From Flavobacteriales bacterium (GTDB taxonomy: Bacteria > Bacteroidota > Bacteroidia > Flavobacteriales_F > PHOS-HE28), in contig JAEUSY010000005.1 in assembly GCA_016788295.1 (NCBI GenBank), positions 62,001-126,000 of the forward strand: a DNA stretch of 64,000 nt. The letters are read 5' to 3'. This document shows positions 23,489-36,257 of the stretch, one piece after another. The position numbers and the translations under genes are program-made. How positions within the stretch are numbered: position 1 is the first letter of the stretch; each line of letters starts with the position of its first letter. The notes under the pieces were generated by a model. It searched no databases and was not told the origin of the DNA. It saw nothing but the letters and a program-made list of their open reading frames with translations.

Positions 23489-24292
23489 TTACGGCTTGTA
23501 GTACTTCAGCGCCTCGGGCATGTAGTTCTCCAGGTCGCGCATGCGGGTCTCATCGCTGGGGTGCGTGCTCAGCAGCTCGGGTGGTGCCTGTCCGCCGCCC
23601 TGGCTCATGCGCTGCCAGAACTTGGGAGCCTCACGCGGGTCATACCCGGCCAAGGCCATGAACACCAGGCCCATCTTGTCGGCTTCGGTCTCGTGCTTGC
23701 GGCTGTAGGCCAGCATGCCCAGTTGGCTACCAATGCCCATGCTCTGCAGGAAAATGTCGCGGGTAAGGCCGGGGTTCTGTGCGGTGAGCACTTCCAAGGT
23801 CATGCCTGCACCTTGCAGAGCGATGGCCTGGCTCATGCGTTCGTTGCCGTGGCGCGCAATGGCATGGGCGATCTCGTGGCCCATCACCACGGCCAGACCT
23901 GCATCGTTCAGCGTGACCGGCAGGATACCTGTGTACACCACCACTTTACCGCCGGGCATGCACCACGCGTTCACGGTGTTGTCGTTCACCACATTGAACT
24001 CCCACGTGAACCCGGCCACCCGATCGCCGGCCTTGTTGTCGTTGAGGAAGGTGGTGGCGGCTTCGGCCAGCTTGCGACCGATGGCACGCACCTGGCGCAC
24101 GCGCTGATCACTGTCGGGCAGCGGGGGATTGGCGCCCAGGAACTCGCCGTATTGCGTGGAGGCCATGGCCATGATCTCCGGCTCGCCCACCAGGTTCATC
24201 TGCCGTCTTCCGGTGATCGGCACTTTGGCGCAGGCCTGCACAAGCACGATAGCGGCCAATAAGGCGGCGCTCTTCACAAGGGTCCGTTTCAT
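23489..24292 (-). CDS. M48-family metallopeptidase lipoprotein (LoiP/BepA-like core)
   Basis: 267 residues. Lipoprotein signal MKRTLVKSAALLAAIVLVQA is followed by Cys21. The zinc motif is GHEIAH (His139, Glu140, His143), and the third ligand lies in HETEADKMG near residue 203, as in M48 peptidases. The protein is short, with no TPR tail, which fits the LoiP/YggG-like group. It probably degrades or checks proteins at the periplasmic face of a membrane. Its ATG overlaps the stop codon of clpS (ATGA), which fixes the start and points to translational coupling. Confidence 0.92.
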   Translation of the reverse strand: MKRTLVKSAALLAAIVLVQACAKVPITGRRQMNLVGEPEIMAMASTQYGEFLGANPPLPDSDQRVRQVRAIGRKLAEAATTFLNDNKAGDRVAGFTWEFNVVNDNTVNAWCMPGGKVVVYTGILPVTLNDAGLAVVMGHEIAHAIARHGNERMSQAIALQGAGMTLEVLTAQNPGLTRDIFLQSMGIGSQLGMLAYSRKHETEADKMGLVFMALAGYDPREAPKFWQRMSQGGGQAPPELLSTHPSDETRMRDLENYMPEALKYYKP

Positions 24293-24648: not shown

Positions 24649-27600
24649 CTACGGCTTGGCCAGGATCTCCGGGCCGAACTTCTCCAACAGGGCGGTGGCC
24701 TCGCGCATGGGGATGCGCTTGCCGTTGAGGTAGGCGGTGATGAAGGCATCCTTCACCCCGAGCACCACGGCCTCATCCTTGCGCACCCGGGCACTTTCCA
24801 CATCGAGGTAGAGCCCGGTGGTGTAGCGCACCTTCTGCGTTTCGGTGAGCTCGCTGTTGAGGGGGGTGATGTTGAAGAGCCTGTCCAGCGGAACGGGCTT
24901 GCTGTACACACCCACCTGCACGGTGAAGAAGAGGCCCTTCACCGTCTCCACCTGACGGGCAGGTGCGGCTCCAGGAACATTGTAGTAGCTGGTGGCCTCG
25001 GGCGCTGGAGCGAAGGTGGCCACGATCTCCTGCGCGGTGGCCGGGTAGCGGGCCAATACCTGTGCGGCCTCCTCGGCCGGGGTGGGCGGCAAGGGCTGCG
25101 TAGGTGGCTGAATGACAACCGGGGCGGGCTGTTGTGCAGCAGGTTCCAACACGGTGTTGGCGGGCGCTGGTGCGCGCTCGGACACCAGCGGTGCAGCGGC
25201 CTGTTCGGCACGGGCAGCGCGCATGGCCTCGCCCAATGGAATGCGTTGGCCATCGCGGTAGGCCACTACGAAGGCGTCACGGTAGCCACGGTCGCGCACC
25301 TGGTCCTTGGCACGCGCGGCCTGCTCGAAGCCGGTGAACAGGCCGGCGGTGTAGCGCACCAGACCATTGCCCACGGTCTCGCCCATCACCGGTGTCATGT
25401 CGCTGAACGCCTCTTGCGGCACGGCATTCCGGAAGGCTCCGATCTGCACCTTGAACACGATGCCCTTGGGCAGTTCCATGTCCATGGGAATGGCCTCTTC
25501 GCGACGCTCGGTGGCCGCACGCAGCTCGAACATGTCGGTAACCAGTTCATCAGGCATGCGCAGGGTCGAAGGACGTTCGTCGGCAGCGACGACAGGACGC
25601 TCCGAACGGACGGCTGTTGCGGGCGCCGGTCGTTCACCCGCCTGCGTTCCCGTTGACGGTGTTGGCACCTCGGTGCGGGCAATGACAGGCTCGGGCGTTG
25701 GCGCACGGTCCGGCGTAGCTGTTGGTGCAGGTGCCGTGGCACGAACAGGTGCTGTGGAAGCAGCGCCTGGCGCACCGGTTGCGGCGCTTGGTGCCGGCAT
25801 GCGGGCGCTGGCCAACATCGGTTCGGTGCGGCGTGTGCGCATTTCCAAGGCCATGATACTGCTGGACCGATCGGCATTGAGGCCTTGGAGCATCACCCCG
25901 GCCTGGGCCTCGTTGATGGCCGCAGCACCGCGCAGTCGCGAGGCCACATTGTCCAATGAATCGGCCCGGGCGTCGAGGGCATCGGCGCGGGCGTTCAATA
26001 CGTTCATGCGTTCCACCGCAACAGCTGCAGGCACACGACCATTGGCGGCATCGCGCTCGGTGGTCCTGGCCTCGGCACGTAGAACAGCGCTCACCTCACG
26101 GTTGCCCACCGCCGCGCGGCTGGCATCATCGGCCGCTGTGTATTGCTCCAGTGCAAGCGATCGGGCCTGGAAGTAGCGGCTATGGTCGGTGTCATCCTCC
26201 ACCATCAACTGCTCTTCGGAGGAGAGGTAGTAGTATTTCACCAACCGCTCACGCGAAAGTCGTGCGGCCTCTGCCTGACGCGCGCTCAACTCCAGTTCGC
26301 GTGCCTTTTCGGCGTTTACCAGCGAGGCAGCCTGTAATGAATCACCTCCGATGCGTGCACGCACGGCAAGCTTTTCCAAGCGGTCACGATCGCGCTTGCG
26401 CGCAGTGGCCGCACTATCCGCGTAGGCCACGGCCATGTCCTGCAGGCGCATGGCGTCCTGTTGTTGTTCGGCAGCCGTAGTGCGGGCGCTTTCCGCCTTT
26501 ATAGTGAGCAATTGCGGGTCCATGGACGGGTCTGCCGCCTCAAGGCTGGTGAGGCTGCCCGCTTCACTGGACAGGAATCGTTCATAGCGCGCGGCAGGCG
26601 AGCGCTGTTCGGCCGACAAACGCTGCTCGGCAGCAGCGGCCATGCGCTCAGCATCGATCCGGGCCTGGTCCAGCGATGCGCTCGCGGGTGTGGTCGTCGT
26701 TGCCGGCATGGCTGCTGGCGCGGCCCCTGCTCCGCTTTCCGGCGCACGTTGAACGGCCACTTCGGGCTGCTCGGATGTGGTGACCGGGTCGGCACTTCCA
26801 TCATTGCCAACACCAGTGGCCACGATGGTGGGAACAATGTTCTGAGCGTTGCCTCCGACCTGCTCCGTTGGTGGGGGTGTAACCTCTGCGGTGGTAGTGG
26901 GTGCTTCCACGATGGTCCGCTGTGCCACCTCCGGTGTATTGGCGGTCGCTTCGGTGGCCGGGCGACCGAACATGCGCTCAGCAATGGCGTCATAGGCCAG
27001 GGTCTCGCCGCGCTGGTGGGCATCGCCCAGCAGGTAGTTGCGTACGGTGATGGAGCGATCGGCATCACGCAGCGCTTCCAGTTCGGTGCGGTATGCCGTA
27101 CGGAAAAGGCTGTCGCGCAGAATGATGTCCTCCGAGCGGTCGGCACGTTTGCGCAACTGGGCGGCCTTATCAAACCCGGCCTGGGCACTGGTGCGGTAGT
27201 CTTGCGCCATCAGGAGCAGTGGCTCCGTGGGTGCGAATCCTTTGGTGGTGATGGCCTTGTCCAAAACCTTCATGCTATCGGTGGCGGCGCGCCACTCTTC
27301 CTTGGTGAGGTACGCACTGCGCTGGCCCAGGTCGGCACGGATGATCAATCGCTCATCGATCAGGCGATCGGTCTCCTTGCGCGTGCGGTCATAAGCGCGA
27401 TCACGTGTTGCCGAGGCCAGGTACGCTTCGAGTGAATCGATGCGGGTGGTGAGGTCCTCCATGCGCGCCAGGTCCGCATCCCTGAAGGCCACAGCGTCAT
27501 CGACCGTGGTCGCACGGTGCTCCAACTTGCTGGCATACACATCGGTGGCGTAGGGCGCCAGTTGCACGAAGCGGTCGTTGACCGGATCGCTGTTGGTGGT

Positions 27601-30600
27601 GCCTGCAACGCGCACACCATCAGAAGCACCAGTGCTTTTCGGAGCACCATCGGCAGTGCCCAGAGCGGCCAGCTCATTCTGCCTGTCCCTGAGATGCTGT
27701 TCAGCTTTTTGCAACTGCTCGGCGCGCATTTCACGCAAGCGGGCCACACGCGGCAGCACCTCCTCGGCGCGCTGCGGCGCCAGCTCAAGCAACTGCACCT
27801 GACGGGCCATCTCCTCGCGGATGCTATCTGCCAGCATCAGTTCAAGTCCGTTGAGGCCCGCAGCACGCTCGTCGGCATCAGGCAGTTCCATCAGGCTCTT
27901 CCGGTCGCGGTCATAGTCGGCGTAGAGCTTGGGGAGGATCGCGCTCGCCGGTGCGTTGCGGTCGAAGACCAAGGGTGTTCGGGCCGGGTCGACTTGCACA
28001 TCAGAAAGGTCATCAGCCGAGCGATCGGTGCTCTCTGCCAATGCATCTGCCTTTTCCATGGCCGCCAGCTTGGCCTCCATCTCGGTCAGCATGCGCTGCA
28101 GGCTGTCGCGACGACCACGGTCTCGTTCCACGGCGATCAGCTGGCGCAGTTCATCGCGCTGGTTCTCCACTACGAAACGGTCCGTGTTGGTCCCGTCCGT
28201 GGTGCCTTGTTGCTCCGTGACCTCGGGCCGTGTGTCATTGCCATCGGCCAGGTCACCCCCGCCCTGCTTGCCCGCCTCAACAGCCACCGCAACAGTGGGT
28301 GCCTCTGTGCGACCACTCTCCTGCTGGCCCTGCTGACCTTGTTGCCCCTGCTGTGCCGCATTCCCGGTCCTGGCAGCCTCTGTGCTGGCATCCGCGGTCT
28401 GCTGCTCCGTGCGCACAGGTCCTTGTTCAGCACGATCCCGGTCAGTGCTCACTGGTACTACACCAACCTGCCCTTGTTCCAGTGTGCGTTGGTCGTTGCC
28501 CGAATTGGGCATCACGGCCGTGCGACCGGTAGTCGCCTGGGCCTGGCCTTCGGTAGTGCGCTGTTGCGCTTGTGTAGGGGTTTGCGCAGCGCCTGTACCA
28601 TTGGCAGCGGAGACCAACGCCCAATCGAAAGTGCGAGACTCCGCTTCGGTGGTCGACACGGCCAATTGTGCATCGAAGCGCTCATCGATGGGCAGTGCTT
28701 CGATGCGATCACTGCTTCCCGCAATGCGTCCACCAAGTTGCTCCACTTGTGCGGCGTCCAATCGGGTCGCCACGCCGGCAGAACCACCGGTGGTCAAGTG
28801 CTTCGTGAGCGATGCCTGTCCACGCAGGGTGGCCGTGCGTTTCTCCTCGGCCCGCGCCTTGGCGAACGCAGCTTCGGTCTCGCTGTGTTGCGCAGCCAAT
28901 TGTTCGCTCAGTTCATCGATGCTCCGTTGAAGCTCGTCCTTCTTCGCCTTGCTGCGTGCATCCGTCTGCTCGCGCTTCAGGCGGTTGAGGCGATCGGTCA
29001 TCTCGTTCTCCTCGGTGCGCTTGCCGTTGGCAACGGTGAGCAAACGCGCGGATTCCTTCTCCTGTGCGGAAAGGGTACGACGTGCTTTTTCGGCGACATC
29101 GGGATCCAGATCGGGCCGGGCCTTCGTGTCGAGTCGCTGCTTCAGTTCGGTCAAATGGGCCAGTGTGCGGGCATCGTTGCCTGCGGCCATGGTGGCCTGC
29201 AGTTCGGTGCTCAAGCGTGTGGCCGTCGCAGCCTTCTGGCGGGTGGTCTGTGCCTCGCTCTCCAAGGCCACCCCGGTGCGGTGTGCGGCCTGTGCACGCA
29301 TGGCGGCCTCGCGCGAACGCTGGCGGGCGCGGGCCGCCTCCACCATCAGGGCGTTGCGCTCCTCTTCGGTCGAAGCCTGGGCAGCGGCCTGAATTCGTGC
29401 CTCGGCCTCACGGGTCTCACGCTCGGCCTCGGTGGTGGCATCGAGCGCAATGCTGAACGCCTCTTGCGCGTGCACCGACAGTTCCTCGGACATCCGTTCC
29501 AGTTCCAACGCATCTTCCTGGGCCAGCTTTACCGCTGCACGCTCATCCATATCGCCAGCGAATCCGGCCTGGGTCATCAGATCGGCAGGGGCTGATGGCT
29601 CGGGAGCGGGTTGTGCCGCAACGGGACGATCACCGTTCACATCAAGGCGTGCCCTACGCTTGATCTCATCCAAGGCAAGGGCTAACAGGTCATCATCCAA
29701 CGGTGTCTCGAAGTAGTTGCGGATGACCAAGCGTTCCTGATCGCCATTGCGCGTTAGGGTAAGCTCCTGGCGATAGGCCTTCGGACCATCACTACGGGGC
29801 ACTTCCACAATACCGCCATGGGTCTTGCCCGTTGGGCCACACTCCACTTTGTAGCGGAACCTGCCGCTCCTTGGCAGCGATAGCGCATAGTTGCCGTTGA
29901 GGTCGGTACGCACATCGGCCACCTGCTCTCCGGTAAGCGCGTCCTCCACCATGATGCGCGCCTTGCGGTCCAGTTCATCGTACTCGCTGGCGAAGGTGCC
30001 CTTCAGTACGGTGATCACCAAGGGCAGTTGGGCCGTGGCCACGCGGTACACGTGCACCTGGCCTTGACGACTGCTGCGTGCACTGGCAAAGCAGGCCTCC
30101 TTGCCCTCGGGGTCCACGAGATAGAAAATGTCATCATCGGGTGTGTTCACCGCGAAGTCCAGGTTCTCCGGACGACCGAAGGCATCCATGCCCCGGTCAT
30201 AGGCTGCGCGGAACACATCGTAGCCGCCCATGCTGTTGTGCCCCTTGCTGCTGAAGTAGAAGGTCTTTCCGTCGGGGTGCAGGAATGGGAAGTCCTCATC
30301 CTGATCGGTGTTGATGTAGCCGGCCAGCTTCACCGGTGCAGCGAAGGTGCCATCGGGCAGCAGTTCGGTGCGGTAGATATCGCGCCCGGTCTTGCCATCC
30401 TTGCCATAGCTGCTGAAGTAGATGGGGCCACCGCGTTCGGGCAGGTAGACCAGCGAGCGTTCCTTGCTCTTCTTGTCCAACGAGGTACGCAGCTCTTCAG
30501 GCAGCACCACGATCTTGCCGCCAATGTCGCTGAGGTCGTAGAAGCGGAAGAACTCCTTGTCATCCACCTCCACCTTGTTGCGCACCGTGATCTCCTTCAG

Positions 30601-31044
30601 GTTGTTCAGCAGCTTTTCCCCATTGCGGCACTGCTTCTGGAGGGCATCAACGGGGAGCTCGGCAATGGCCTTCTTATCGTCGGTGCCAAGGAAACGTTGG
30701 TAAGCGGCCTGCGCCTCGCGGAAACGGTAGTTCAGGTGATAGGCACGGCCCAGCCAATACCAAGCGCGCGGGTCGGTGGAAGGCGCCTCGGTGGCATATT
30801 TCAGGTGCCCGATGGCCTTCTCCTTGTCGCTGCCTCCGAACAGCAAACACGCTCCAAAGCGGTAGTTGAGGTCGCGGTCGGCCGGGGTAAGGCTGACCAA
30901 CTGGGAGTACATGGGCATGGCCTCGGCGTAGCGCTTCTCGTTGAAGAGCGCATCCGCCTTGGCGCGCAGCTGTTGATCACCGCCCTGCCCGAGGGACAGG
31001 AACGGAAGGAGCACGCCGATAAATATGACCGCGAAGCGGGTCAT
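24649..31044 (-). CDS. 2131-residue exported TPR / PD40 / coiled-coil / double-SPOR protein
   Basis: Signal peptide MTRFAVIFIGVLLPFLSLGQ supports this ATG; an in-frame ATG 16 codons upstream would only add a basic leader. TPR repeats lie at about 18-115 (AEAMPMYSQLVSLTP). PD40/WD40-like strands lie at about 200-306 (FPFLHPDGKTFYFSSKGHNS), and a CarboxypepD_reg-like domain at about 361-398. Then come some 1400 residues of charged, Ala/Gln/Glu-rich coiled coil and linker. Two SPOR-like domains close the protein at about 1855-1945 (VFKVQIGAFRNAVP) and 2035-2121 (FFTVQVGVYSKPVP). The front half resembles PorE of the T9SS, with SPOR in place of its OmpA-like domain. SPOR domains bind denuded peptidoglycan. 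Downstream of plsY with 44 bp between, so likely one operon. Confidence 0.88.
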   Translation of the reverse strand: MTRFAVIFIGVLLPFLSLGQGGDQQLRAKADALFNEKRYAEAMPMYSQLVSLTPADRDLNYRFGACLLFGGSDKEKAIGHLKYATEAPSTDPRAWYWLGRAYHLNYRFREAQAAYQRFLGTDDKKAIAELPVDALQKQCRNGEKLLNNLKEITVRNKVEVDDKEFFRFYDLSDIGGKIVVLPEELRTSLDKKSKERSLVYLPERGGPIYFSSYGKDGKTGRDIYRTELLPDGTFAAPVKLAGYINTDQDEDFPFLHPDGKTFYFSSKGHNSMGGYDVFRAAYDRGMDAFGRPENLDFAVNTPDDDIFYLVDPEGKEACFASARSSRQGQVHVYRVATAQLPLVITVLKGTFASEYDELDRKARIMVEDALTGEQVADVRTDLNGNYALSLPRSGRFRYKVECGPTGKTHGGIVEVPRSDGPKAYRQELTLTRNGDQERLVIRNYFETPLDDDLLALALDEIKRRARLDVNGDRPVAAQPAPEPSAPADLMTQAGFAGDMDERAAVKLAQEDALELERMSEELSVHAQEAFSIALDATTEAERETREAEARIQAAAQASTEEERNALMVEAARARQRSREAAMRAQAAHRTGVALESEAQTTRQKAATATRLSTELQATMAAGNDARTLAHLTELKQRLDTKARPDLDPDVAEKARRTLSAQEKESARLLTVANGKRTEENEMTDRLNRLKREQTDARSKAKKDELQRSIDELSEQLAAQHSETEAAFAKARAEEKRTATLRGQASLTKHLTTGGSAGVATRLDAAQVEQLGGRIAGSSDRIEALPIDERFDAQLAVSTTEAESRTFDWALVSAANGTGAAQTPTQAQQRTTEGQAQATTGRTAVMPNSGNDQRTLEQGQVGVVPVSTDRDRAEQGPVRTEQQTADASTEAARTGNAAQQGQQGQQGQQESGRTEAPTVAVAVEAGKQGGGDLADGNDTRPEVTEQQGTTDGTNTDRFVVENQRDELRQLIAVERDRGRRDSLQRMLTEMEAKLAAMEKADALAESTDRSADDLSDVQVDPARTPLVFDRNAPASAILPKLYADYDRDRKSLMELPDADERAAGLNGLELMLADSIREEMARQVQLLELAPQRAEEVLPRVARLREMRAEQLQKAEQHLRDRQNELAALGTADGAPKSTGASDGVRVAGTTNSDPVNDRFVQLAPYATDVYASKLEHRATTVDDAVAFRDADLARMEDLTTRIDSLEAYLASATRDRAYDRTRKETDRLIDERLIIRADLGQRSAYLTKEEWRAATDSMKVLDKAITTKGFAPTEPLLLMAQDYRTSAQAGFDKAAQLRKRADRSEDIILRDSLFRTAYRTELEALRDADRSITVRNYLLGDAHQRGETLAYDAIAERMFGRPATEATANTPEVAQRTIVEAPTTTAEVTPPPTEQVGGNAQNIVPTIVATGVGNDGSADPVTTSEQPEVAVQRAPESGAGAAPAAMPATTTTPASASLDQARIDAERMAAAAEQRLSAEQRSPAARYERFLSSEAGSLTSLEAADPSMDPQLLTIKAESARTTAAEQQQDAMRLQDMAVAYADSAATARKRDRDRLEKLAVRARIGGDSLQAASLVNAEKARELELSARQAEAARLSRERLVKYYYLSSEEQLMVEDDTDHSRYFQARSLALEQYTAADDASRAAVGNREVSAVLRAEARTTERDAANGRVPAAVAVERMNVLNARADALDARADSLDNVASRLRGAAAINEAQAGVMLQGLNADRSSSIMALEMRTRRTEPMLASARMPAPSAATGAPGAASTAPVRATAPAPTATPDRAPTPEPVIARTEVPTPSTGTQAGERPAPATAVRSERPVVAADERPSTLRMPDELVTDMFELRAATERREEAIPMDMELPKGIVFKVQIGAFRNAVPQEAFSDMTPVMGETVGNGLVRYTAGLFTGFEQAARAKDQVRDRGYRDAFVVAYRDGQRIPLGEAMRAARAEQAAAPLVSERAPAPANTVLEPAAQQPAPVVIQPPTQPLPPTPAEEAAQVLARYPATAQEIVATFAPAPEATSYYNVPGAAPARQVETVKGLFFTVQVGVYSKPVPLDRLFNITPLNSELTETQKVRYTTGLYLDVESARVRKDEAVVLGVKDAFITAYLNGKRIPMREATALLEKFGPEILAKP

Positions 31045-31088: not shown

Positions 31089-31739
31089 TCATTGCGATGG
31101 GCCGGAACGACCGGCCAGGTTCATGCGGTTCTCCTGGCCTTTGAGCAGCCGCCCGATGTTCTCCCGGTGCGTGTAGAACACCAGGAGGCACAGGGCAATG
31201 GCGAAGCCGATCTTCACGGTGCTATCCTCATGAAAGAGGAAGGCCATGGACAACGGGAACGACAGCGCGGAGAACAAGGAACTGAGCGACACATAGCGGG
31301 AAAGGAGGAAGACCACCAGGAACACCGCCACGCATACACCTGCGGCACCCGGATGGAAGGCCAGCACGCCACCGAGCGAGGTGGCCACCCCCTTGCCTCC
31401 CTTGAACCCCGCGAACACAGGGTACAAATGGCCAACAACGGCCGCCACCACCAAGGCCACGCGCAGCCAATCGAAACCGGGTGTACCGTCCGCTACGCCC
31501 ACCATTTTCGGCAGCAGGAAGACCGGCAGAAAGCCCTTGGCCACATCGATCAGCAGTACAGGTATACCGGCCTTCCTACCCAGCACGCGGAAGGTGTTGG
31601 TGGCCCCTGCATTGCGGCTTCCGTGCTCGCGCACATCAACGCCATAAAATGCGCGGCCCCACCACACGCTGGTGGGAATGCTTCCGGAGAGATAGGCCAG
31701 TAACACGGCGGCCAACCCGTACACCCAGGGGAGGTCCAT
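31089..31739 (-). CDS. plsY: Glycerol-3-phosphate acyltransferase PlsY
   Basis: 216 residues, polytopic (five or more hydrophobic helices). The three PlsY motifs are present: SGSIPTS near residue 19, GSRNAGATNTFRVLG near 40-54, and GHLYPVFAGFKGGKGVATS near 102-120. It transfers acyl from acyl-phosphate to glycerol-3-phosphate, the first step of phospholipid synthesis, in the inner membrane. It lies 3 bp after the stop of the 1504-residue gene and just before the SPOR giant, all on the minus strand. Confidence 0.96.
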   Translation of the reverse strand: MDLPWVYGLAAVLLAYLSGSIPTSVWWGRAFYGVDVREHGSRNAGATNTFRVLGRKAGIPVLLIDVAKGFLPVFLLPKMVGVADGTPGFDWLRVALVVAAVVGHLYPVFAGFKGGKGVATSLGGVLAFHPGAAGVCVAVFLVVFLLSRYVSLSSLFSALSFPLSMAFLFHEDSTVKIGFAIALCLLVFYTHRENIGRLLKGQENRMNLAGRSGPSQ

Positions 31740-31742
31740 GGT

Positions 31743-34700
31743 TCAGTTCAATCCGAAGCGTTCGCGGAAATCGTCCACCTTCTTCTTGTTCGTGAGAATG
31801 TACTGGTAAGCGGGCAGGTCCTTGCCATCCTCCAGCTTGCGCTTATCGTCCTTCACCTCGCTCAGCATGGTGTTGAACTGCTGGTCGCTGCTGTAGGCAT
31901 AGAGCATGTTGCGCGTGTACTGGAAGAAGTAATAGGTCTGGTCGTCCAGCATCAGCATGATGGTGAGGATGTTCCCGCTGCGCTTGCGCTCCAGATGCAC
32001 CTTGCCCTTCACGTAGCGGTACACCGGCTTTTTCAGGATGCTGGCAATTCCGATGGGGCCCTCGCTCACCCAGCTCTGTTCGGGACCATCCCAGCGCATC
32101 TTCACATCGGCAAGCACCAGGGGCTTCACCAATTCCTCGGGCAGTTTCTTGATCTCGCCCTTGATGCTCAGTTCGCTGATCAGCTTATCCGAACGCTCCA
32201 GGCCCAGCACTTCGCGGAGCATACGTTCATAGTAGGTCTTGGTGATGTCCACCTGTTTCTGCTCGGGGTAGGCCAGGATCTCGGCGGCCATGCGCTCCAA
32301 CGCGTTCTCCAGGAAGTGGAAGTCCACGAGCATCACCTCGGAGGTGGTGGTCTTGTCGCCCTCCGTTTCATGGCGCAAGGTGCCCACGTTGGTCAGCTTG
32401 ATCCGGCCCACATCCACCCCATGATCGATCCGGCCATCGGCCATTACCAGGCAATTCTCCACGGCCAGGCTCACAAGGTCGCCAGGCAGATCGCGCTGGC
32501 GGATCTTGTCCTTCGGACCGATCATGTACTCCTTGCGGCCTTTATCGTAGTACAACAGGCCCTTCGCGGCCATCACGGGATAGTCCTTGCGGTCCTTCAA
32601 TGGACTTAGGAAGGCCGCGTAGGTGCGGTACGGATCATCGCTGGTGAGGTAGGCACCGGAGCCGATCACCGCACCGAGGTCATCACGCAGCGAATCGGCC
32701 ACGGGGATGAACACCTCCAAGGGGTCGATCGGGCCACTGAAACGCATCCAATTGCGCGCCATGCCTGCACAACCGTGCTGGATGCGGGTGCTGCCCGAGA
32801 AGGTCAGTTCCTTCACGCTGGCGGTGAGCGCCACATCGCCAAAGAAGTCGAACGCAGGGCTGAGCTGGAAGTCCTCTTCCTTGGCAATGCGCCCCTGTGC
32901 ACGGGTCTGGAAGGCGGTGTCCACCCCTACGCTGTGGAGCTTGATCTTGAACGCCCGCTTGTTCTCGTCCAGGTAGTCGATCTCGCCTGTGGCCGTATAG
33001 TCGCGCCGGGCCTTGATGTTGGCCGTGGCGTTGTAGATGCGGTGGTACTTGGTAACGTAGTTGGCCGTGATCACGGTGTTCGTGAGCGGGTCCATCACGG
33101 CATTGCGCCGGATGCGCACACGCATGCTGTCCGGCGTGATCAACGCATCGGCCACTTGGATGTACTGCACATCATTGGCGGTGATCAGGTGTTTCTTCAG
33201 GTCGTATCTCGCTTTGGGTGCCATGAAGGCGAGCGAGTCCTGATCGGGGCGGGTACTGATGAAGTTGGAGCCTGAAAGCTGGAGGTCCTCATTACCAGCT
33301 GCTGCCGTGCGATCGCTCTCCAGCTCGATATCGCCTTGGTCCATGAACCACTTGAAGCGGTCCATGAAGCAGATGTACTGGTTCACCGGGAACTCCACCT
33401 TGGTCTCGCTGCCATTGCTAACGAACTCGCCCACACGCTCATCCAGCTTCACAGTGGCGTTCACGTTATCCGTTTTGAAGGCAATGCTGGAGGTATCACC
33501 CTCGGTGAGGCGGAAATCCGAGGTATCGGCATGGAGCTTCATGGTCTCGAACTGGAAGAGGTCCGAGCGAAGGGTGGCATTACGGAAGTCGATGAGGCCT
33601 GCGCCCGTCATACCAGCGGGGGTCAGGTCCGTGATGCCGTGCAGCAGGGCCTGGTCATCGTACATCACCATGGGCTTGCGGAGCTTCTCGGAGCGCAGCA
33701 CATCGCGGGCAGGTTCCAGGCGCACGAAGAGGTCGTTACCGGCCACCACGGGCACCTTGGCGGGCGCTGTGCTCGATCGGTTGTACAGCGTGTCCGCGCG
33801 TCCCAATGTGCTATCAGGTGTAAAGACAAGGCTCTTCGACCGAAGCTTCGTGGTGAGGTACTCCATGTCGCCATCGCCCTGCAGACCGCGGTTGTTGAGG
33901 GTGATGGTGTTGGTGAACTTCGCTTTGCGTCCATAGAGCGGGAGGCCCGCATCTCCGGTGTTCCGCACGAAGCCCAGGGCATAATCCGGCTGGAGTTTCA
34001 GCGGTTCGCGGATATCGGGGAAGATGCCGCCGCTGACCAGAGTTCCGGTGAACGTTAGACCCGCATTGGTGAAGTTGTCCAGCGAATCGATCTGGAACGG
34101 GTCGCTCTTGTAGTAGAACTTGTCACGCACGTACACACCGCGCTGTATGGTGCGTTTGCTGTAGAACACAAAGCTCTCCTTGGTGCTGTTGAACTTGGGG
34201 TATTCGGGGTATTTCTCCTGCTGCCTTCCCCCCTTGTTGCTCGGCGCATCGATCTCCAATGTGCCGGTCACTTGCTCCAGCACGTTCTTCACACGCACCA
34301 GCGTGGTGCGGCCCTCGGCGTTCTTCTCGAAACTGTCGGCCATGAAGGAGACACTGTCCACGTTCAACAGATCGATGGTGAAGGGGTCGTAGTGGAAGTA
34401 GTACTCCTTGCCGTAGTACTGCAACTTACCGGCCTGTATGCTGCCGCCGAACGTGAAGTCACGGCCCTTCTTGATGGTGACAAGCTTCTCGCTGGGGTAG
34501 ATCTTCACATCCTGCGAGTCGCTCACCACGATGCGGGCCACGCCACGCATGGTGAGGTCGTTGTTCAGCAGGTTCAGCGTGGCGTTCACCCCATCCTCCA
34601 CATTGGAGTTGAACTGCAGCACATCGTAATCCTGTTTGCCAGCGCTGTTCAGGATGTGCTGGCGCAGGCGCGGAAGGACCTCCACCCACTCTGTCTCGGG

Positions 34701-36257
34701 GTCGTACTTCAGGTAACCCTTGTTGGCCATATCGATGAGCAGCGGCACCACCTGCTGCTTCTGCATGCGGCTGTACACGGCGAATTCCTGTGCATAGAAA
34801 TGTCCACCGTTCTGTTTGCTGAAATCGTTCAAGCGCACCAGGGGATGCACGTTATCGATCCCCAGCATGCCCATGTAGCGCTTCTCCTTGAAGTAGTCGT
34901 AGCTCTCGAAACTGGCCTTGTTCTGCGTACTTCCCTGGAGGGAGCCCATCTGCACCAGCGGGTCACCCTGTTTCCAGGTCAGCACCTCGAAGTACATATC
35001 AAGCAGGTGGAAGCTGTTGTAGAAGGGCGCTTTACCCAAGCCCTCGTCCTTCTTGATGATGGTGAGCTGCTTCTTGTCCTTCAGGAAGCGCAGGCTGACG
35101 CTCTGGTGGTAGAGCGAATCCTTTTCCATGCGCAGGCGCACGGTGGCATCGTCGCTGGTGATGCGCTCAGGCTCGATGCTGAACTTCAGGCCACTGGAAA
35201 CGATGAAGGGCCGCTTATCGCGATAGAACGTGAGGTAGGCCGGCTCCTCCTTGGTGCCATAGCCCTGCAGCTTCGCGCCTTCAATGGTGAAACCGCCCTC
35301 GAAGTCGATGCCCTCGGCGATGTCGCGGACCTTCAGACGCCGATCGTGGCTCTCGAAACGTGGATAGGTCGCATTGTCCTTGTCCACATTGGCCATCACC
35401 TTGTCGCTCACCTTGCCCAGCAGGGTGCGCTCGAAATAGGGGTGGTTGAAGCGCACGGTATCCACGTCGAAGGCGGCGCTCTTCATGCGCACGGTGTAGG
35501 CATGGTCCCATTCGGCGAAGGTGGCGCCAGGCTTCAGGCCGGCTCTTTCCCAAGTGACCTTTCCGCCCATGCCCCGCCAGGTCTCTGTGGTGGGGTAATA
35601 GGTGCCCGAGGTGGCGAGGATGATGGCACTATCGCCCTTTGCGAGGCAAACGAGGTCGGTCTTCGCGAACCGTACCATGGGCACACTGTCGAAAACGAAG
35701 GTGAACTGTGGGCTTCGGCTACGCCAGATGGTACTGGCGCCTGAGTAAAGGGTATTGTCCTTGAAGAGGCCTGCGCAAGTGGCCACGAACGCGACCACGT
35801 TCTGCTTGCGGTTGCCCTGCACCAGTTGGTCCATGCCCTGCATCCATGCATCGAACTCGGCAGCTCCACGGCCCGTGCCGGGGAATGCGGCCACCGCGGC
35901 CAGGTAATCCCTGAAATGGGGGAATGCCTCGAAGCGTTTCTTCAACATGAAGTTGGCCACCTCCACCACCTTCACACGCTGTCGCTCGCTGTACCAGGTG
36001 CTGTTCCAGGCGGGGGCGAACACCTGCTCCATGAACGGCCTGCCCTCCTTCTTGTCGGCCGCGATAATGAACTCGGACACCTCCTGCAGGAACAGCGCCT
36101 GATCGGAGGAGAAAGGCTTGGTCTGGGCAACAGATGACAGCGAAGCACAAGCCCATAACAAGCTCCATAGCAGAGCCCTGAGGTGGACCGTACGTGGAAC
36201 GTACTTGGTCAGACCCTCATTGACCGTCCTTTCGTCGTTCTGCACCGTTCCGTTCAT
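31743..36257 (-). CDS. 1504-residue exported protein of unknown function
   Basis: Start MNGTVQNDERTV overlaps the prmA stop codon (ATGA), so it is translationally coupled to prmA. A basic N-region and a hydrophobic stretch (LRALLWSLLWACASLSSVAQ) suggest a signal peptide at about 27-46. The rest is soluble and strand-rich, with no membrane segment. Around residues 1040-1160, alternating strands (APKARYDLKKHLITANDVQY, VADALITPDS) look like the OstA/LptA beta-taco pattern, but this is a visual resemblance only. There is no T9SS tail or PNP motif. I do not recognise the family. Position among prmA, plsY and the SPOR giant hints at an envelope role. Confidence 0.85.
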   Translation of the reverse strand: MNGTVQNDERTVNEGLTKYVPRTVHLRALLWSLLWACASLSSVAQTKPFSSDQALFLQEVSEFIIAADKKEGRPFMEQVFAPAWNSTWYSERQRVKVVEVANFMLKKRFEAFPHFRDYLAAVAAFPGTGRGAAEFDAWMQGMDQLVQGNRKQNVVAFVATCAGLFKDNTLYSGASTIWRSRSPQFTFVFDSVPMVRFAKTDLVCLAKGDSAIILATSGTYYPTTETWRGMGGKVTWERAGLKPGATFAEWDHAYTVRMKSAAFDVDTVRFNHPYFERTLLGKVSDKVMANVDKDNATYPRFESHDRRLKVRDIAEGIDFEGGFTIEGAKLQGYGTKEEPAYLTFYRDKRPFIVSSGLKFSIEPERITSDDATVRLRMEKDSLYHQSVSLRFLKDKKQLTIIKKDEGLGKAPFYNSFHLLDMYFEVLTWKQGDPLVQMGSLQGSTQNKASFESYDYFKEKRYMGMLGIDNVHPLVRLNDFSKQNGGHFYAQEFAVYSRMQKQQVVPLLIDMANKGYLKYDPETEWVEVLPRLRQHILNSAGKQDYDVLQFNSNVEDGVNATLNLLNNDLTMRGVARIVVSDSQDVKIYPSEKLVTIKKGRDFTFGGSIQAGKLQYYGKEYYFHYDPFTIDLLNVDSVSFMADSFEKNAEGRTTLVRVKNVLEQVTGTLEIDAPSNKGGRQQEKYPEYPKFNSTKESFVFYSKRTIQRGVYVRDKFYYKSDPFQIDSLDNFTNAGLTFTGTLVSGGIFPDIREPLKLQPDYALGFVRNTGDAGLPLYGRKAKFTNTITLNNRGLQGDGDMEYLTTKLRSKSLVFTPDSTLGRADTLYNRSSTAPAKVPVVAGNDLFVRLEPARDVLRSEKLRKPMVMYDDQALLHGITDLTPAGMTGAGLIDFRNATLRSDLFQFETMKLHADTSDFRLTEGDTSSIAFKTDNVNATVKLDERVGEFVSNGSETKVEFPVNQYICFMDRFKWFMDQGDIELESDRTAAAGNEDLQLSGSNFISTRPDQDSLAFMAPKARYDLKKHLITANDVQYIQVADALITPDSMRVRIRRNAVMDPLTNTVITANYVTKYHRIYNATANIKARRDYTATGEIDYLDENKRAFKIKLHSVGVDTAFQTRAQGRIAKEEDFQLSPAFDFFGDVALTASVKELTFSGSTRIQHGCAGMARNWMRFSGPIDPLEVFIPVADSLRDDLGAVIGSGAYLTSDDPYRTYAAFLSPLKDRKDYPVMAAKGLLYYDKGRKEYMIGPKDKIRQRDLPGDLVSLAVENCLVMADGRIDHGVDVGRIKLTNVGTLRHETEGDKTTTSEVMLVDFHFLENALERMAAEILAYPEQKQVDITKTYYERMLREVLGLERSDKLISELSIKGEIKKLPEELVKPLVLADVKMRWDGPEQSWVSEGPIGIASILKKPVYRYVKGKVHLERKRSGNILTIMLMLDDQTYYFFQYTRNMLYAYSSDQQFNTMLSEVKDDKRKLEDGKDLPAYQYILTNKKKVDDFRERFGLN

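What the first reader, a model, noticed from the sequence alone, without database searches (positions are those of the whole stretch)
24649..31044. PorE-like architecture ending in two SPOR domains instead of OmpA
TPR, PD40 and CarboxypepD_reg-like domains in this order recall PorE, which anchors the T9SS through an OmpA-type peptidoglycan-binding domain. Here some 1400 residues of coiled coil separate that head from two SPOR domains, which bind glycan strands stripped of peptides. A very long envelope-spanning tether aimed at the division site is a testable idea.
Basis: partly seen in the sequence, partly recalled or inferred. Interest (0 to 1): 0.6.

Follow-up and report, generated by a model that had tools for sequence, protein, structure and literature searches.

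The report
Giant septum-aimed periplasmic scaffold protein
This is a 2,131-residue exported protein, conserved across many Flavobacteriales families, whose tail carries domains that recognise the bare cell-wall strands found where cells divide, so it probably holds an envelope machine at the division site; it shares its front half with a type IX secretion protein, but nothing found ties it to that system.

Summary
One intact reading frame (24649-31044, minus strand, 2131 aa) encodes a signal peptide, TPR, a small PD40 propeller, a CarboxypepD-reg-like domain, about 1,390 residues of spacer, and two SPOR domains. SPOR scores below Pfam's cut-off in this single sequence. It is supported by 20 of 20 relatives matching Pfam SPOR, a predicted SPOR fold that finds CwlC and FtsN, and near-invariant glycan-contact residues.

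It belongs to an undescribed, vertically inherited family, found in 129 of 296 genomes of the class, with 2-4 SPOR domains in nearly every uncut member. It sits in a conserved envelope locus beside an orphan ~1,500-aa exported protein.

Three points of the interpretation fail or weaken. The genome has a separate PorE-type protein with OmpA. The head is no closer to PorE than to other paralogues, and the locus holds no T9SS genes. The protein is not a lipoprotein, and the spacer is helical blocks with disordered linkers, not 1,400 residues of continuous coiled coil.

Best reading: a soluble periplasmic scaffold targeted to septal peptidoglycan, analogous to the CpoB/TolB/Pal logic. Glycan binding is well supported. 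Septal localisation, partners and biological role are inferred.

The parts
24649..31044 (-). Whole gene, 2131 aa, TPR-PD40-CRD-spacer-SPOR-SPOR
   Evidence: homologues align end to end in the genus
30988..31044 (-). Signal peptide (residues 1-19, MTRFAVIFIGVLLPFLSLG, next residue Q), no lipobox cysteine
   Evidence: Sequence; 78 of 79 homologues have an A/G/S-Q type site; cleavage site inferred
30595..30987 (-). TPR helical domain (residues about 20-150)
   Evidence: Pfam TPR hits; AlphaFold helices H5-H131 of the head model
30037..30585 (-). Short PD40/WD40-like propeller (residues about 154-336), smaller than PorE's
   Evidence: PD40 9e-7; strands in the head model; about 80-residue gap against the PorE propeller
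29707..30018 (-). CarboxypepD-reg-like beta domain (residues about 343-446); absent in one relative (L068)
   Evidence: NCBIfam alignment, head model strands E328-E427, alignment A2
25495..29637 (-). Spacer (residues about 470-1850): helix-prone blocks about 497-776, 950-1140, 1170-1360, 1480-1740 with disordered linkers
   Evidence: Composition and periodicity; low conservation
25222..25467 (-). SPOR domain 1 (residues 1860-1941), FKVQIGAF...RYTAG
24697..24942 (-). SPOR domain 2 (residues 2035-2116), FTVQVGVY...RYTTG
   Evidence: not found by Pfam in the single sequence
31089..31739 (-). PlsY glycerol-3-phosphate acyltransferase, 44 bp upstream; missing between neighbours in some relatives
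   Evidence: Pfam 1e-56; spacing
31743..36257 (-). Orphan exported protein of 1504 aa, best candidate partner
   Evidence: No Pfam/NCBIfam match; in 46 of 80 homologous loci; in 128 of 129 genomes with the giant
23489..24292 (-). M48 metallopeptidase, apparent lipoprotein (BepA/LoiP-like), downstream, conserved

Best explanation
A soluble periplasmic scaffold aimed at septal peptidoglycan. Sec exports it and the signal peptide is cleaved (inferred from sequence). The two C-terminal SPOR domains bind glycan strands that cell-wall amidases have stripped of peptides, which concentrates the protein at the division site (glycan binding strongly predicted; localisation inferred from SPOR biology). 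The long spacer of helices and flexible linkers gives reach rather than a rigid span. The N-terminal TPR, propeller and CRD bind an outer-membrane or periplasmic partner, most likely the adjacent ~1,500-aa exported protein (inferred). The result would be to hold outer-membrane or envelope-building machinery at the constricting septum, much as CpoB, TolB and Pal do with separate proteins in E. coli.
For: Pfam SPOR in 20/20 relatives. Predicted SPOR fold with CwlC as top PDB match, by structure and by sequence profile (1x60, E 0.00023). The residue matching RlpA Q270 is Q in 157/158 first and second SPOR copies, and the residue matching R309 is R in 153/158 (residue roles from PMC6895207; equivalence by alignment). 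At least two SPOR copies in nearly every uncut member. The same SPOR type sits on an Amidase_3 cell-wall amidase and on an outer-membrane barrel in the same genome. Conserved locus with the 1,500-aa exported protein and M48 peptidase across families; co-occurrence 128/129 against 112/167. Head conserved end to end as a TPR-propeller interaction module.
Against: No localisation, binding or mutant data. SPOR scores in this one sequence are below the Pfam cut-off. The spacer could not be modelled. The partner is inferred only from neighbourhood, and the co-occurrence is confounded by shared descent. About half of the sampled class lacks the family, so the role is not universal. A third SPOR copy in many relatives has lost the basic residue.
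Confidence: 0.55

Rival explanations
1. It is a PorE-like T9SS component that anchors the secretion machine to septal rather than general peptidoglycan.
For: Head homologous to the own-genome PorE-type protein across TPR-PD40-CRD; T9SS present in the genome (SprA at C14; T9SS sorting domains in the window).
Against: Separate PorE-type protein with OmpA present; closest paralogue is an OmpA-less protein, not PorE; no T9SS genes in the locus; not a lipoprotein; more than half of the SprA-bearing genomes in the class lack it.
Confidence: 0.12
2. It works with the adjacent ~1,500-aa exported protein, PlsY and the M48 peptidase in outer-membrane biogenesis, with the SPOR domains serving only as general peptidoglycan attachment, not division-site targeting.
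For: Conserved gene order and co-occurrence; tight same-strand spacing of 3 and 44 bp.
Against: PlsY is housekeeping and missing between the neighbours in several relatives; SPOR domains recognise denuded glycans, enriched at septa (PMC6895207).
Confidence: 0.23
3. A passive structural filler or stalk that links outer membrane and wall, with no division role, as CHU_0125/Pal does for outer-membrane integrity.
For: Head similarity to CHU_0125 (93 bits); CHU_0125 loss damages outer-membrane integrity (PMC5891637).
Against: No lipid anchor; SPOR instead of OmpA.
Confidence: 0.1

Closest known systems
PorE (PG1058/PGN_1296; NCBIfam NF052230)
   Same: TPR, propeller, CRD in the same order; C-terminal peptidoglycan-binding module
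   Different: PorE is a 672-aa lipoprotein ending in OmpA_C, with a larger five-bladed propeller and no spacer; here 2131 aa, no lipobox, SPOR pair
CHU_0125 family (NCBIfam NF053607), Pal-like outer-membrane integrity protein
   Same: Best-scoring model for the head (93 bits)
   Different: 656 aa, ends in OmpA_C; the score here is far below the 620-bit cut-off
SPOR proteins of division (FtsN, DamX, DedD, RlpA) and CwlC
   Same: SPOR fold and glycan-contact Q and R
   Different: Those are mostly single-SPOR, membrane-anchored or enzymatic; here 2-4 SPOR on a giant with a TPR-propeller head
CpoB, TolB and Pal of the Tol-Pal system
   Same: TPR, propeller and peptidoglycan-binding parts that act at the septum; works-like comparison only
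   Different: Separate proteins in E. coli; no homology tested; Pal binds through OmpA

Membership tests
PorE / T9SS PorE family | NCBIfam NF052230 score of at least 600 bits | tested here: not met
   79.5 bits
PorE / T9SS PorE family | C-terminal OmpA_C peptidoglycan-binding domain | tested here: not met
   No OmpA hit; SPOR instead
PorE / T9SS PorE family | N-terminal lipoprotein anchor | tested here: not met
   No lipobox; 78/79 homologues with Sec-type A/G/S-Q site; PorE lipidation from PMC7192894
PorE / T9SS PorE family | TPR, propeller and CRD head in this order | tested here: met
   hhalign over the whole head, E 4.8e-43
PorE / T9SS PorE family | Needed for T9SS secretion | not testable with these tools
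   Needs deletion and secretion assay
SPOR domain superfamily | Pfam PF05036 match | tested here: met
   This sequence 20.8 bits against 21 (just below); 20/20 relatives match, best 1.1e-16
SPOR domain superfamily | Beta-alpha-beta-beta-alpha-beta SPOR fold | tested here: met
   AlphaFold pLDDT 85; CwlC rank 1, prob 1.00, E 0.047, TM by target 0.67; FtsN rank 20
SPOR domain superfamily | Conserved Gln and basic patch that contact denuded glycan | tested here: met
   Q 157/158, R 153/158 in copies 1 and 2
SPOR domain superfamily | Binding to denuded glycan and septal localisation | not testable with these tools
   Needs biochemistry and microscopy
CHU_0125 family | NCBIfam NF053607 at least 620 bits, with OmpA | tested here: not met
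   93.3 bits, head only

The most novel reading that the evidence does not exclude
A previously undescribed giant divisome-associated scaffold of Flavobacteriales, in which a PorE/Pal-type head has exchanged its general wall anchor (OmpA) for septum-reading SPOR domains on a very long flexible arm. It would form, with the orphan ~1,500-aa exported partner, a lineage-specific machine that couples outer-membrane constriction or assembly to septal peptidoglycan.
Probability: 0.3. Interest if true: 0.75.

Novelty: new variant of a known kind. Interest (0 to 1): 0.5.

Why it matters
How Bacteroidota coordinate outer-membrane constriction with septal wall remodelling is little studied. A widespread giant protein that combines a Pal/PorE-type head with denuded-glycan readers, in a conserved locus with an orphan giant partner, gives concrete genes to tag and delete. 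It also warns that TPR-PD40-CRD architecture is not evidence for T9SS function.

Tried and rejected
OmpA remnant after the CRD: the full-head hhalign ran into the start of OmpA, but the stub alone scored no better than a control (E 0.29 against 0.30), so it was dropped. Continuous coiled coil: heptad test mostly at shuffle level. T9SS co-occurrence: uninformative, SprA in 288/296. Single-sequence scan of genome contigs found no relative; the alignment scan did. Two relatives searches with the full protein failed; the tail query worked. Literature searches for SPOR with PD40, Flavobacterium, Bacteroidota or gliding found no description of the family. Foldseek on the head gave separate TPR and propeller matches, not one whole-head match.

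Full report
What is there. The stretch 24649-31044 on the minus strand is one open frame of 2131 codons. It begins with a Sec-type signal peptide without a lipobox. Of 79 homologues examined, 78 have an A/G/S-Q type site; three lipobox-like strings turned up and none looks credible. TPR and PD40 are found by Pfam. PD40 and the CRD-like domain match the NCBIfam models CHU_0125 (93 bits) and PorE (80 bits), well short of membership (cut-offs 620 and 600). AlphaFold of the head gives a confident TPR, a small propeller and a beta domain (pLDDT 87). Against PorE the propeller region is about 80 residues shorter.

SPOR. In the whole protein SPOR is only E=0.29; in the isolated tail it is 20.8 bits against a cut-off of 21, and all 20 aligned relatives match, best 1.1e-16. 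The tail model has two copies of the SPOR order of strands and helices (pLDDT 85). Foldseek against the PDB ranks the CwlC SPOR domain first (prob 1.00, E 0.047) and lists FtsN at rank 20. A sequence profile of the domains also finds CwlC first (E 0.00023). In RlpA, Q270 and R309 contact the denuded glycan (PMC6895207). By alignment, these positions are Q in 157 of 158 and R in 153 of 158 first and second copies across 80 proteins; some records are near-duplicates, so the counts are not independent. Third copies, where present, have mostly lost the basic residue. The same SPOR type occurs in this genome on an Amidase_3 protein and on an outer-membrane barrel with three SPOR domains.

Spacer. 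Residues 470-1850 are not a uniform coiled coil. Helix-prone blocks alternate with P/G/S/T/Q-rich linkers. Significant helical periodicity appears only in windows within 497-776 and 1645-1700. The spacer is the least conserved part and varies in length. If it were one straight helix it would be far longer than a Gram-negative periplasm (own knowledge), so a straight span is unlikely. It was not modelled.

Family. The tail query finds the gene in nearly all near-complete genomes of the genus and in six other families. An alignment scan of named genomes gives Flavobacteriales records including Salibacter halophilus and Fluviicola chungangensis. Nearly every member with an uncut frame carries 2-4 SPOR domains; a few frames (for example L152, L155) show fewer than two. 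In 296 genomes of the class, 129 carry it at strong E-values, while a sample of 247 phylum genomes shows a full-length member only in the own genome and one other. No paper found describes it.

Locus. The order TIM, PrmA, ~1,500-aa exported protein, PlsY, this gene, M48 peptidase is kept in the genus and in other families. The ~1,500-aa protein has no Pfam or NCBIfam match. It occurs in 128 of 129 genomes with the giant and 112 of 167 without it (the genome lists were transcribed by hand, and shared descent is not corrected for). In several relatives it lies next to the giant without PlsY between them. It is therefore the best candidate partner, by inference.

T9SS link. The genome has a separate PorE-type protein with OmpA (L073:7368-9374, 519 bits; below the 600 cut-off but best in the genome). 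The closest paralogue of the head is a 538-aa TPR-PD40-CRD protein without OmpA (134 bits); the PorE-type protein scores 88 bits. SprA is in 288 of 296 genomes whether or not the giant is present. Nothing specific connects this protein with T9SS.

Mechanism. Shown by computation: domain order, SPOR fold and conserved glycan-contact residues, family, conserved locus. Inferred: export and cleavage, glycan binding, septal localisation, partner binding by the head, and coupling of outer-membrane or envelope machinery to the septum. The works-like comparison is CpoB (TPR), TolB (propeller) and Pal (wall anchor), which act at the E. coli septum (abstracts of PMC4458516 and PMC7066135; domain contents from own knowledge); homology to them was not tested.

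Novelty. SPOR and PorE-type heads are known; their combination in a conserved giant family appears undescribed in the papers held. New variant of a known kind.

Noticed in passing
window 31743-36257 (-): Orphan exported ~1,500-aa protein without any Pfam or NCBIfam match, present in 240 of 296 genomes of the class.
   Followed up: partly
L070:7653-9746 (own genome, contig C22): Outer-membrane barrel with a TSP_3-like repeat and three SPOR domains where OmpA_C would be expected.
   Followed up: partly
L079:8459-9775 (own genome, contig C37): Amidase_3 cell-wall amidase with a C-terminal SPOR domain of the same type as the giant; Pfam does not flag that SPOR.
   Followed up: partly
L119 (CP034120.1): A chromosome titled Glaciecola amylolytica carries the complete Flavobacteriales locus; the record is probably misnamed.
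   Followed up: no
One search, e.g. G499:C13:63238-65487, G399:C6:45746-47995: Proteins of about 980-1000 aa with two PD40-type head matches in tandem; another variant of the head family.
   Followed up: no
L005:1393-3009 (own genome, contig C38): TPR-PD40-CRD protein of 538 aa without OmpA or SPOR, the closest paralogue of the head.
   Followed up: partly
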